Assembly: GCF_014204715.1 (NCBI RefSeq) | Contig: NZ_JACHLY010000001.1 | Location: 1,395,001 to 1,459,000, forward strand | Direction of reading: 5' to 3' | DNA: 64,000 nt | Source of the DNA: Streptomonospora salina | GTDB taxonomy: Bacteria; Actinomycetota; Actinomycetes; Streptosporangiales; Streptosporangiaceae | In this document: positions 16,368 through 56,764 of the stretch, one piece after another | Layout of the letters: the number at the start of each line of letters is the position of its first letter | Numbering within the stretch: the first letter of the stretch is position 1 | Notes under the pieces: model-generated | The model's database searches: none | Told to the model about the DNA's origin: nothing | What the model saw: the letters and a program-made list of their open reading frames with translations, nothing else | Position numbers and translations under genes: made by a program

Positions 16368-16396
16368 CAGGCTTTCTGCGGCGGGCCCCCCGGTCT

Positions 16397-16831
16397 TCAG
16401 ACCGAGGAGAGCGCCGCTCCCTCCTCTCGGTTGGTATAGCCGCAACCGCCTCCCCGTCGGGGGAGGCGGACGTGGCGGTAGTGGATGTCTTTCACGATGC
16501 GGCGGGCCGTACGGACGGAGAAGCTGCCGTCGGGCCGCACTGCGGCCCGACCGGTGCGGGTCCCGGCGTTCCCGCCTGCGGGCGCGACGGCGCGGACGCG
16601 ACCGCCCGGGGCGACGGCGAGGAACGTCCGCAGCGGCACCTCGGCCCGGGCCGGGATGTTCGCCGGTCGTGCGGACCCGGCCTGGAGGACGCCGGCAGTG
16701 CGGTCCTTCGGCCGGACGGTGCGGAGACCACGGCGGTGCACGACCGCGCGTACCTTCCGGGCCCCGGCGGGCGGGTACGGCTGGAGCGGAGGGCGGTGCC
16801 GGTCGAGCACGACCGCGTAGGGCTCGGACCG
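16397..16831 (-). pseudogene. IscB remnant A (RRXRR N-terminus and C-terminal domain only)
   Basis: On the minus strand the frame contains YAVVLDRHRPPLQPYPPAGARKVR, written here as VVLDRH...PLQPYPPAGARK, which resembles the IscB N-terminal segment VLDKxxxPLxPCxPARARKLL. About 60 residues further, PARAEVPLR joins directly to VRAVAPAGGNAGTRTGR and runs through the C-terminal domain to GCGYTNREEGAALSSV. RuvC-I, bridge helix, RuvC-II, HNH and RuvC-III are all missing. The RRXRR core is itself blurred (PYPPAG for PCPPAR) and no start codon lies in frame at the expected place, so I call it a pseudogene. The C-terminal part has no stop and looks less decayed. Confidence 0.7.
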
Positions 16832-17041
16832 GGCGGGGGTCCCGCGGCCCTGCTCCCCGGCCCCGGAGGGGTCGGGGGCGGCGGCCCCGGGCCGCTGAGG
16901 AGGCACGGCCCGGCGGGTCTGCGGTCCTGTGTGGAACGTAGCCAACGGGGTCACCTCCCTAACCTGCCGGCCGGTGCCGGCAACGGCGGGCCACGGCCGA
17001 TCGGGCCGAAAGCCCCCGCCTCCAAGCGGGGAACCCGTCAC
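16820..17041 (-). ncRNA. HEARO/omega-RNA-like structured RNA, copy A
   Basis: Region 5' of the IscB remnant, where IscB loci encode their guide-scaffold RNA (the HEARO RNA family). Reading the minus strand, it starts with a CCCCGC/GCGGGG hairpin followed by GCTTTCGGCCC. It then contains a block (16890-16960) identical at 70 of 71 positions to copy B, and ends in a GGCCGGGG hairpin shared with copy B just before the protein start. Conservation here far exceeds that of the protein remnant, which points to an RNA function. The guide, if any, would be the flanking sequence beyond 17041. Confidence 0.65.
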
Positions 17042-53460: not shown

Positions 53461-54318
53461 TCATTCCTCGGCTCTGCGCATGACCACGAACCGGTCGCGG
53501 TGCGCGAGGTCCTTGCGGTTGCGGACGTCGCGCCAGCCGCTCCCCTCGGGGAACAGCCGCGGGATGTCGATGCCTTGCCCGTCGCCGTGCTCGATCGCCA
53601 TGGCGCCGCCCGGGCGCAGCAGCCTGCGTCCCACCGCCTCCAGCTCGCGGATCGCGTCCAGGCCGTCGTCGCCGGCCCACAGCGCGCGGTCCGGGTCGTG
53701 GTTGGAGACCTCGGGCGGGATCCCCGCGGCCTCGGCCGTGGGCACGTACGGCGGGTTGGAGATCACCAGGTCCATCCGGCCGTCGAACTCGGCCAGCGCC
53801 GAACGCATGTCGGCACGGTGGGCGGTGACCCGGTCGGAACGGCCGCCGGCGTCGATGTTGCGCCGCGCCCAGCCCAGCGCGTCGGCGTCGACCTCGACCG
53901 CGTGGACCCGCGAACGCGGGACCTCCTGGGCGAGAGAGATGGCGATGGCGCCCGACCCGGTCCCCAAGTCGGCCACCACGGGGTCGGCGACGTCCATGGC
54001 ACGCAGCGTGTCGATCGCCCAGCCGACCATGATCTCGGTCTCGGGGCGGGGGACGAAGACACCGGGCCCCACCTGGAGCTCCAGGTACCGGAAGTAGGCC
54101 AGGCCGGTGATGTGCTGCAGCGGTTCGCGCGCGGCGCGGCGGGCGACGCACTCCCAGTAGCGGGCGTCGAAATCGGCGTCGGCGACCTCGTGCAGCCCTC
54201 CTCGACGGACGCCGTGCACGAACGCCGCGAGCTCCTCGGCGTCGGTGCGTGGCGAGGGGACGCCCGACTCGGCCAGCCGCAGCGTGGCCCGGGCGACCTC
54301 GTCGAGCAGGAAGTTCAT
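53461..54318 (-). CDS. prmC: PrmC/HemK, N5-glutamine methyltransferase of release factors
   Basis: SAM-dependent enzyme of 285 residues that methylates the Gln of the GGQ motif in PrfA and PrfB. It shows the N-terminal helical domain, FVPRPETE, the SAM site DLGTGSG (117-123) and the catalytic NPPY (188-191). prmC normally follows prfA directly. Here the two are about 1 kb apart because an IscB-type element sits between them, its right end only five bases upstream of the prmC ATG. The native leader and ribosome site have therefore been replaced by element sequence (GCCGCAGAACCTCG). No frameshift is seen. Confidence 0.95.
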   Translation of the reverse strand: MNFLLDEVARATLRLAESGVPSPRTDAEELAAFVHGVRRGGLHEVADADFDARYWECVARRAAREPLQHITGLAYFRYLELQVGPGVFVPRPETEIMVGWAIDTLRAMDVADPVVADLGTGSGAIAISLAQEVPRSRVHAVEVDADALGWARRNIDAGGRSDRVTAHRADMRSALAEFDGRMDLVISNPPYVPTAEAAGIPPEVSNHDPDRALWAGDDGLDAIRELEAVGRRLLRPGGAMAIEHGDGQGIDIPRLFPEGSGWRDVRNRKDLAHRDRFVVMRRAEE

Positions 54319-54347
54319 CGAGGTTCTGCGGCGGAACCCCCGGCCCT

Positions 54348-54986
54348 TCAGGCCGGGGAGGAAGCCGCTCCCTCCTTTCGGGTGGTATAGCCGTAGCCGT
54401 CCGCTCGCTGGAGCGGGCGGACGCGGCGATGGTGGACTCCTTGGGCGGTTCCGCGGGCGGTGGTGACGTTGAAGTATCCCCGAGCGCGTACGGCCACCCG
54501 GCCGGTGCAGGTGCCCTCGTTCTCGCCCGCGGGCGCGACCGCGCGGACGAGGTCGCCGGTCTGGTACCCGAAGAACGCCTTCTTCCGAGGCACGGCCGGC
54601 CGGGGGAACCCGTGACGGTCGGGGCGGGTGCGGGCGTGGGTGCCGCGGCCGGTGCAGGCGGCCGCCAGCACCCGGGTAACGGTATCGGTGACGGTATCGA
54701 CCGTGCCCACGGCGAGCGCGTCGAGGGTGTGGGTCTTGGGCAGGTGGTTGCGGGCGCGGTTGTACTTGGTGCGTCCACCCGAGGCGATCCGGGTGGGCAG
54801 GCGGGACTCCAGCGCGCGCCACAGCGCCCACCGCACGGATTGGGCCGCGGCGGTATCGCGCAGTGGTGCCTCGGCCCGGGCGAGGATGCGTGCGGCGCCT
54901 TTGGCCAGGAGCTTGCGGGCCCGGGCGGGCGGGCACGGCTGCAACGGGCGGTGGTGCTTGTCGAGTACGAATACGTGCGGGTGCAC
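54348..54986 (-). CDS. Truncated IscB-family protein lacking the nuclease core (212 aa)
   Basis: IscB proteins are RNA-guided nucleases of about 400-500 residues and the ancestors of Cas9. This 212-residue frame begins VHPHVFVLDKHHRPLQPC and goes on with PPARARKLLAKGAARILAR, the RRXRR/PLMP-like N-terminus. At about residue 43 it jumps to AAQSVRWALWRALESRLP, GGRTKYNRARNHLPKTHTLDA (RuvC-III, His86 and Asp89) and the C-terminal domain (HGFPRPAVPRKKAFFGYQTGDLVRAVAP in part, ending GYGYTTRKEG). RuvC-I, the bridge helix, RuvC-II and HNH are missing, so it cannot cut DNA. The frame has no internal stop. I chose the GTG at 54986 because homology starts there; a longer frame upstream is the RNA region. 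Either a decaying gene or a nuclease-dead RNA-binding protein. Confidence 0.78.
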   Translation of the reverse strand: MHPHVFVLDKHHRPLQPCPPARARKLLAKGAARILARAEAPLRDTAAAQSVRWALWRALESRLPTRIASGGRTKYNRARNHLPKTHTLDALAVGTVDTVTDTVTRVLAAACTGRGTHARTRPDRHGFPRPAVPRKKAFFGYQTGDLVRAVAPAGENEGTCTGRVAVRARGYFNVTTARGTAQGVHHRRVRPLQRADGYGYTTRKEGAASSPA

Positions 54987-55306
54987 CTCACGGTGCCTCT
55001 CCCCGGCCCCGGGGGGGCCGGGGGTGGCGCCCCCGGCGCCAGGTGAAGCGCCGGGGGGCTCCTCTCGCACATGTCCCGCACCCGGTGCGCTGCGGCGCTC
55101 GACGCCCGTTTCGTGCCCGCTCCGGGGCGTGTCTGCTGCGTCGGGTGCCAGAGCAGGCCGCTGAGGAGGCACGGCCCGGCGGGTCTGCGGTCCTGTGCGG
55201 AACGTAGCCAACGGGGTCACCTCCCTTGATGTTGGCTGGTGCTGGTAAAGGCGGCCCTCAACCACAGGGGCCGAAAGCCCGGGGCTTCAGCCCGGGATCC
55301 CTTTAC
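54987..55306 (-). ncRNA. HEARO/omega-RNA-like structured RNA, copy B
   Basis: The 320 bases before the IscB-derived start. Minus-strand order: a CCCGGG-type hairpin with loop near CTGAAG, GCTTTCGGCCCC, a variable segment, the 71-base block shared with copy A (55156-55226, one mismatch), a longer variable part, a strong GCCCCCGGCGC hairpin, and CCGGGGCCGGGGAG just before the protein start. In IscB loci this region encodes the guide-scaffold RNA, with the guide taken from sequence flanking the left end, here the last codons of prfA. That a transcript is made is inferred. Confidence 0.68.
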
Positions 55307-56370
55307 GACTCGGCCTGCTCCAGCCTTTCCTTGGTGTCGGCGTCGATGAGCGCCCGGAGGACGCCGTCCAGGTTCCCGTCGAGGACCTGGTCGAGGTTGT
55401 AGGCCTTGTAGCCGACACGGTGATCGGAGATCCGGTTCTCCGGGAAATTGTAGGTGCGGACGCGCTCGGAGCGGTCGACGGTGCGCACCTGGCTCTTGCG
55501 CTCGGCCTCGGCCTCGGCGTCGGCGCTGGCCTGGGCCTCGGCGTAGAGGCGGGAGCGCAGGACGCGCATCGCCTGGTCCTTGTTCTGCAGCTGGCTCTTG
55601 CCGTTCTGGCACGAGACCACGAGGCCGCTGGGAAGGTGGGTGATGCGCACCGCGGAGTCGGTGGTGTTGACGCTCTGGCCACCGGGGCCCGAGGAGCGGA
55701 AGACGTCGATGCGCAGGTCGTTGTCGTGGATCTCGATCTCGACGTCCTCGACTTCGGGCACGACGAGGACGCCGGCGGCCGAGGTGTGGATGCGGCCCTG
55801 CGACTCGGTGACCGGCACGCGCTGCACGCGGTGCACCCCGCCCTCGAACTTGAGCTGGGGCCACACGCCCGTGCCGGGATCGGGGGTGCCCTTGTTCTTG
55901 AAGGCGATGGTGACGTCCTTGTACCCGCCGAGGTCGGAGAGCGTGGAGTCGATGATCTCGGTCTTCCACCCCTGGCGCTCGGCGTAGCGCAGGTACATGC
56001 GCACGAGGTCGCCGGCGAACAGCGCGGACTCTTCGCCGCCCTCGCCGGCCTTGACCTCCACGATGATGTTCTTCTCGTCGGCGGGGTCGCGCGGGATGAG
56101 CAGGTGGTGCAGGCGCTCGATCAGCTCCTCGCGCGTCTGTTCCAGCTGCCGGGCCTCGTCGGCGAAGGCGGAGTCCTCGCCCGAAAGCTCGCGTGCCGTG
56201 CCGAGGTCGGACTCGACCTGCATGAGTTCGCGGTAGGCGGCGATGACGGGTGTGAGCTGGGAGTAGCGCTTACTCAGGGCGCGCGCCCTCGCTTGGTCCG
56301 CGTGCACGGCAGGGTCGGCGAGCTGCTGTTCCAGTTCGTAGTACTCGCCTAGGAGGTCGTCCAGCTTCAC
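55303..56370 (-). CDS. prfA: Peptide chain release factor 1
   Basis: Release factor of 355 residues that reads UAA and UAG. The decoding tripeptide is in RVPVTES (Pro186-Val-Thr188), and the peptidyl-tRNA hydrolysis motif GGQ is at 230-232 in [10 protein letters not shown]. The N-terminal coiled-coil domain starts [17 protein letters not shown] chose the GTG at 56370 by family alignment. The stop codon TAA lies inside the GTAAAGGG left end of IscB-type element B, so the last codons may have been altered by the insertion. Its modifying enzyme gene prmC lies beyond the element. Confidence 0.95.
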
Positions 56371-56548
56371 GTTCGAATATCCAGCTTCCGTCGATGGCCG
56401 TCGGTGGCGTCGTGGCGGGGTGCGCGTCCGCTGCCCGGCGGCCCGGGAGCGGCCCCACCGGGTCGGACAGGGCCCACTACGAACAGCGGCGCCGGTCGCG
56501 CGGCCGAGGTTCGCCCCCGGCTGCGCGTTCCGACGCCGCGTGCGGAAG

Positions 56549-56764
56549 CTACTTGGCGCTGCGCTTGCCGAAGCGCTTCTCGAAGCGGGCGACCCGGCCG
56601 CCGGTGTCCATGATCTTCTGCTTGCCCGTGTAGAACGGGTGGCAGGCGGAGCAGATGTCGGCCCGGATCTCACCCGATGCGGCGGTGCTGCGGGTGGTGA
56701 AGGTGTTGCCGCAGGTGCAGGTGACCTGGGTCACGACGTAGTCGGGATGGATGTCGGCTTTCAC
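56549..56764 (-). CDS. rpmE: 50S ribosomal protein L31 (zinc-binding form)
   Basis: Ribosomal protein of 71 residues starting [21 protein letters not shown]. The pairs Cys-Thr-Cys and Cys-Ser-Ala-Cys ([13 protein letters not shown]) mark the C+ zinc-binding form, the one replaced by a C- paralogue under zinc starvation in actinobacteria. GAGGAG lies six bases before the GTG start. It lies between rho and prfA, as in many Gram-positives, with two strong hairpins separating it from rho. Confidence 0.95.

What the first reader, a model, noticed from the sequence alone, without database searches (positions are those of the whole stretch)
54324..55306. Nuclease-core-deleted IscB (212 aa) with its RNA region, lodged between prfA and prmC
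The frame at 54348-54986 joins an intact RRXRR/PLMP-like N-terminus (LDKHHRPLQPC, PARARKLLAKG) directly to the RuvC-III segment (LPKTHTLDA) and the C-terminal domain. RuvC-I, bridge helix, RuvC-II and HNH are cleanly missing, yet the frame is open to the normal end and follows a structured RNA region. Established: IscB is an RNA-guided nuclease whose omega-RNA (HEARO) lies 5' of the gene. Inference: a nuclease-dead, ultra-small derivative that could still bind RNA or DNA, comparable to nuclease-dead TnpB relatives that became repressors.
Basis: partly seen in the sequence, partly recalled or inferred. Interest (0 to 1): 0.85.

Follow-up and report, generated by a model that had tools for sequence, protein, structure and literature searches.

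The report
Internally deleted, decaying IscB mobile element
A small RNA-guided-nuclease transposon inserted between two bacterial genes and lost its nuclease core through one internal deletion; related copies in the same genome are broken in other ways, so this is most likely an ordinary decaying mobile element and not a new mini-protein.

Summary
On the minus strand, 54319-55306 is a 988-bp IscB/HEARO element between prfA and prmC; five of five sister genomes have the uninterrupted site (GTC^ATGAAC). It carries an omega-RNA (40 bits, under Rfam's gathering score) and a 212-aa frame fusing the first ~30 IscB residues to RuvC-III and the C-terminal domain. Against the nearest intact relative 225 codons are missing, with an 8-nt overlap at the junction.

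A maintained nuclease-dead derivative is not supported. The junction, allowing 3 mismatches, occurs in 1 of 297 genomes, its own. The genome has four partial copies with different deletions, no intact IscB and no full-length Y1 transposase. Two more diverged copies lost 15 of 33 and 11 of 32 invariant C-terminal sites yet still read open, so openness says little. Short repeats in these genes lie in frame 54-65% of the time. dN/dS shows constraint over the whole branch, which includes the intact ancestor, and no significant relaxation; present function is neither shown nor excluded.

Most likely: a non-autonomous, decaying deletion derivative of an IS200/IS605-like IscB element.

The parts
54319..55306 (-). 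Whole IscB/HEARO insertion element, 988 bp, inserted at GTC^ATGAAC, no target-site duplication
   Evidence: Five of five sister genomes have the uninterrupted site; boundaries printed
55053..55306 (-). HEARO / omega-RNA region, full-length, starting at the left end (GTAA)
   Evidence: Rfam RF02033 40.1 bits; 5 of 142 conserved positions altered, range 0-17 in the other 16 sequences
54348..54986 (-). 212-aa frame: first ~30 residues of IscB fused to RuvC-III segment and C-terminal domain
54897..54904 (-). Deletion junction: 8-nt overlap of the two alignments to intact relative L014; 225 codons missing between
   Evidence: blastn; sequences of the two donor places
54338..54358 (-). Right-end palindrome (8-bp stem), followed by a CCGCAGAACC-type tail and ATGA
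   Evidence: sequence
55303..56673 (-). prfA reading frame as listed (true start inside); now stops at the element-supplied TAA instead of TGA
   Evidence: Pfam PCRF and RF-1
53461..54318 (-). prmC; its ATG is the right flank of the element
   Evidence: Pfam PrmC_N and methyltransferase models
16368..17041 (-). Second, more diverged deletion derivative of the same element family (both ends, part of omega-RNA, decayed frame)
   Evidence: blastn pieces; sequence; 15 of 33 invariant C-terminal sites lost

Best explanation
An IscB/HEARO insertion element (IS200/IS605-like, no target duplication) landed exactly at the ATGA where prfA's stop and prmC's start overlap. Its left end, GTAA, gave prfA a new stop codon and its right end left prmC's ATG in place, so neither protein changed. 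Afterwards, or in a parent copy, an illegitimate event between short imperfect direct repeats removed 225 codons of iscB in frame. What remains is a non-autonomous, probably immobile element: structured omega-RNA, left and right ends, and a 212-aa remnant without a nuclease, in early decay. Shown: insertion site, deletion, absent catalytic segments, different deletions in paralogues. Inferred: the deletion mechanism, lack of function, immobility, and the order of events.
For: Empty site in 5 of 5 sister genomes. Junction in 1 of 297 genomes. Four partial copies in the genome with different structures, none intact. The window copy groups with intact L014 (support 91) and copy L002 with intact L012 (support 100), so their deletions are separate. 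Of 20 family loci fetched as possibly partial, 8 keep HEARO with a deletion within or at the start of iscB, at other junctions. Five of 83 conserved sites lost, against 0-4 in 27 intact relatives. No full-length Y1 transposase. In-frame bias of short repeats. Core deletion of IS605-type elements by repeat-mediated deletion is described in PMC3119063 (passages seen).
Against: The omega-RNA is not visibly more damaged than those of other elements (5 of 142). omega = 1 over the whole terminal branch is rejected (2 delta lnL 13.6), and the rise over background is not significant (0.154 against 0.085, 2 delta lnL 2.7) nor specific: the intact L012 branch gave 0.219. In the C-terminal part alone this copy is within the intact range (3 of 35; intact maximum 3 of 38), so the excess of lost sites is small. 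In-frame junctions are frequent: 6 of 7 with HEARO, 9 of 11 with all counted; against a 59% expectation p = 0.15 and 0.11, so some selection for open frames is not excluded. A recent deletion would explain the first three but is not proved.
Confidence: 0.88

Rival explanations
1. A domesticated nuclease-dead mini-IscB that binds omega-RNA and represses a target, as TldR proteins do for TnpB.
For: Nuclease segments removed in frame, RNA kept, frame open, whole-branch omega below 1, in-frame junctions frequent in deleted copies. Inactivated TnpB proteins do act as RNA-guided repressors (PMC13418256, passages seen).
Against: No other copy with this fusion found; five conserved residues lost; the bridge helix and most of the RuvC core are gone, whereas TldR proteins are described as showing no apparent loss of guide and DNA binding; no second guide+NTGA match with up to 3 mismatches in the genome; paralogues decay.
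Confidence: 0.04
2. A passive but still mobile non-autonomous element (PATE/MITE-like) whose ends and RNA are kept because a transposase and an IscB act in trans.
For: Both ends and the RNA are present; several deleted copies of related elements exist in the genome and family.
Against: The genome has only two partial Y1_Tnp matches and no intact IscB; the copies are not near-identical (72% protein identity or less) and the junction occurs once, so there is no burst of this short form.
Confidence: 0.07

Closest known systems
IscB / HEARO ORF with omega-RNA (RF02033, NF040563)
   Same: Order omega-RNA then ORF, N-terminal RRXRR start, RuvC-III and C-terminal domain; ends and ATGA/GTGA right flank as in related elements
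   Different: RuvC-I, bridge helix, RuvC-II and HNH are deleted; scores below both curated cut-offs
PATEs and core-deleted IS605-type elements of Haloquadratum (PMC3119063, passages seen)
   Same: Internally deleted element keeping near-terminal palindromes; deletion attributed to direct repeats
   Different: Here the omega-RNA and part of the coding frame remain, the homology is only ~8 nt, and no multiplied identical copies were seen
IsrB and IshB (recalled; no text read; one paper naming them is in the listing)
   Same: Smaller IscB relatives lacking a domain
   Different: Recalled: IsrB lacks HNH only and IshB keeps HNH; this frame lacks HNH and most of RuvC, and no lineage was found
TldR, TnpB-like nuclease-dead repressors (PMC13418256, passages seen)
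   Same: Descends from a transposon RNA-guided nuclease and has no working nuclease
   Different: TldR form families with gene associations and targets; none was found here

Membership tests
IscB (NF040563), functional | Score over curated cut-off 175 bits | tested here: not met
   77.3 bits in two stretches
IscB (NF040563), functional | RuvC-I/II and HNH catalytic segments present | tested here: not met
   Pfam HNH models match intact L014 and L012 but not this frame; alignment
IscB (NF040563), functional | Descent from IscB with upstream omega-RNA | tested here: met
   Up to 79% identity to an intact relative on the retained columns, tree, HEARO
HEARO RNA (RF02033) | Match at or above gathering score 83 | tested here: not met
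   40.1 bits, though E 1.7e-6 over the full model; of the 24 HEARO matches only L058 reaches 83
HEARO RNA (RF02033) | Conserved structure | tested here: met
   Covarying consensus and 5 of 142 conserved positions altered
Deletion derivative / PATE-like element | Both ends kept, core deleted at short direct repeats | tested here: met
   Ends and junction; only 8 nt of overlap, with L014 as stand-in for the parent
Deletion derivative / PATE-like element | Evidence of mobilisation as the short form | tested here: not met
   The junction occurs once in the genome
TldR-like repressor | Conserved orthologous lineage with inactivated nuclease | tested here: not met
   1 of 297 genomes for near-identical junctions; no other fused copy seen among the matches listed that were examined
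TldR-like repressor | RNA and DNA binding | not testable with these tools
   Needs expression and binding experiments

The most novel reading that the evidence does not exclude
The 212-aa remnant, with its C-terminal TAM-reading domain and the kept omega-RNA, still forms a ribonucleoprotein that marks the prfA-prmC junction or competes with invading intact IscB elements that would cut the empty site; the frequent in-frame deletions in the family would then reflect selection for such remnants.
Probability: 0.04. Interest if true: 0.7.

Novelty: new member of a known kind. Interest (0 to 1): 0.15.

Why it matters
It shows how easily an in-frame deletion in a high-GC mobile element can look like a designed mini-protein, and gives controls for such claims: in-frame bias of short repeats, and decayed paralogues that still read open. 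If the remnant did bind RNA and DNA it would be a very small natural RNA-guided binder, but nothing here argues for that directly.

Tried and rejected
Structure prediction as a test of folding: the 212-aa model is confident only at about residues 131-196 (mean pLDDT 52.9), but the intact control L014 is no better (47.4), so the comparison says nothing about loss of fold; in both only the C-terminal beta region is confident. Foldseek put HfmIscB and IsrB first, but at E 0.065 and 0.069, not significant.

A stop-codon-repair rule (GTAA left end at ATGA overlaps) as a general strategy: 18 of 24 left ends begin GTAA, but my script located both ends in only 8 elements, a Shine-Dalgarno-like motif in 4 of these, and at least two ends are doubtful (L079, L082). 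It stays an observation.

Excess of in-frame deletions as a sign of selection: 6 of 7 junctions with HEARO, or 9 of 11 when L003, L066, L068 and L131 are added, are in frame. Against one third this is unlikely (0.007 and 0.001); against the 59% in-frame share of 7-mer repeats it is 0.15 and 0.11. The loci were picked by eye from the rows. Not excluded, and because of the wider count I lowered my main confidence from 0.90 to 0.88 and raised the repressor reading and the novel case from 0.03 to 0.04 each.

Promoter and terminator scan: nothing found. Phage, plasmid and viral-contig searches gave only more distant relatives (best 43%, 61% and 58% identity); these were not examined for deletions. 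One further IscB-profile hit in the genome, L006 (profile 183-242 only), is an HNH-type frame by its printed translation and was set aside without further test. Serine transposases were not searched.

Literature: searches returned 7, 2, 1, 3, 3, 10, 3 and 0 papers; I saw listings for all and passages of three (PMC9755519, PMC3119063, PMC13418256). Nothing in these listings is about natural nuclease-dead IscB, but I did not read the rest. That HEARO elements insert at ATGA/GTGA, and that standalone omega-RNAs exist, is recalled from Weinberg 2009 and Altae-Tran 2021, which were not read.

Full report
What is there. Its first ~33 residues match Pfam RRXRR (profile 1-33 of 174). NCBIfam IscB matches in two pieces, best 251-314, total 77.3 bits against a cut-off of 175, the other piece being profile 1-33. 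Upstream, 55306-55053 matches the full HEARO model at 40.1 bits, below the gathering score of 83 (one search lists none at that threshold). The same frame stays open through the RNA (305 aa).

Boundaries and target. In all five other genomes of the genus that are held, prfA and prmC overlap as GTCATGAACTTCCTG; the two bases before GTC differ (GA, TC, GA, CA, CA). In the window this reads GAGTC | 988 bp | ATGAAC. The element therefore lies at 54319-55306. Its first bases GTAA turn prfA's last codons TCA TGA into TCG TAA, so PrfA is unchanged; PrmC's ATG is untouched. Sister genome G005 corresponds to Streptomonospora sp. PA3 (L011 and L077 agree in contig position), from which I infer the genus. 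Of the five, only G005 has relatives of the frame (three places).

The deletion. Against the nearest intact relative, L014 from another genus of the family, element positions 1-410 and 403-979 align to two places, leaving out 225 codons (residues 37-261) with an 8-nt overlap at the junction (donor sequences). The exact parent is unknown; L014 is a stand-in. Intact relatives carry HNH and the full RRXRR domain by Pfam.

Is it a lineage? A 33-nt pattern across the junction, with up to 3 mismatches, was found in 1 of 297 genomes, the own one; this sees near-identical junctions only. By protein, 53 of 297 family genomes hold relatives (at most 10 candidates per genome were scored); of the listed matches that begin in the first 12 query residues and run into the C-terminal part, L016 is full-length, L057 is interrupted and L058 has another deletion. 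A further search found 272 relatives in named genomes and kept the best 80: 68 align in one piece over at least 390 residues; of the other 12 several begin at or near contig ends and cannot be judged, two have divergent starts, and L077, L131 and L140 are shifted or broken; where both sides are held none shows this fusion. The own genome has four copies: this one; L002, which lacks the whole N-terminus and nuclease; L003 (inside the window at 16368-17041); and L004. None is intact. In the tree this copy pairs with L014 (support 91) and L002 with L012 (support 100), so their deletions arose separately. Of 20 family loci fetched as possibly partial, two proved full-length (L061, L073); 12 have a HEARO match; 8 of these have a deletion within or at the start of iscB (L058, L059, L062, L070, L071, L072, L074, L075), at other junctions.

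Is it under selection? On columns conserved at 95% in intact relatives, this copy has lost 5 of 83, against 0-4 of 83-87 in 27 intact proteins; in the C-terminal part alone it lost 3 of 35, equal to the intact maximum of 3 of 38. A home-made codon model on 9 taxa and 211 codons gave omega 0.154 on this branch and 0.085 elsewhere; freeing the branch improves lnL by 1.35 (not significant), and fixing it at 1 worsens lnL by 6.8 against the free fit. Controls: L014 0.102, L012 (intact) 0.219, L002 0.191, so the slight rise is not specific to this copy. Divergence is high and the branch includes time before the deletion, so the result may mainly record the intact ancestor. The omega-RNA has 5 of 142 conserved positions altered, within the 0-17 of the other 16 sequences, 9 of which precede full-length iscB; its HEARO score is the lowest of the 14 matches, while two are lower. 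These facts fit a recent deletion; they do not show present function and do not exclude it.

Why open and in frame? GC is 74% and 4.9% of simple shuffles stay open, so openness is not trivial by composition alone. But L003 and L004, which lost 15 of 33 and 11 of 32 invariant C-terminal sites, also read through (open frames of 232 and 378 aa). Direct repeats of 6, 7 and 8 nt in 27 intact genes lie in frame 54%, 59% and 65% of the time. Six of seven junctions with HEARO, or nine of eleven in all that I could judge, are in frame, which is compatible with that bias (p 0.15 and 0.11 at 59%) but not with one third. Selection for open frames in deleted copies is thus not needed, but not excluded.

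Could it act? No full-length Y1 transposase was found in the genome (two partial matches). The natural guide, the end of prfA, has no second match with an NTGA TAM within 3 mismatches. Structure models were inconclusive, the intact control being no better. I therefore read it as a decaying, non-autonomous deletion derivative; similar core deletions of IS605-type elements are described in PMC3119063 (passages seen). Association of HEARO ORFs with TnpA is described as rare in PMC9755519 (passages seen), so absence of TnpA beside it is not unusual.

Noticed in passing
window 16368-17041 (minus): A second, more diverged IscB/HEARO deletion derivative keeps both ends, sits just before an ATGG start with a GGAGGAGG motif upstream, and still reads open for 232 aa although 15 of 33 invariant C-terminal sites are lost.
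   Followed up: partly
window 55303-55309 and left ends of related loci: The left end GTAA recreates a stop codon when the element inserts at an ATGA stop/start overlap; 18 of 24 left ends in the family sample begin GTAA and one GTAG. This could be a way to insert between overlapping genes without changing either protein.
   Followed up: partly
L058 (family genome G062, contig 25): A HEARO RNA that passes the Rfam gathering score (83.6 bits) stands before a differently deleted and frameshifted iscB.
   Followed up: no
window 53461-54936 (minus): The prmC frame stays open upstream through much of the element (491 aa listed), so translation from within the element into prmC is possible; prmC's start is now 988 bp from its old upstream region.
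   Followed up: no
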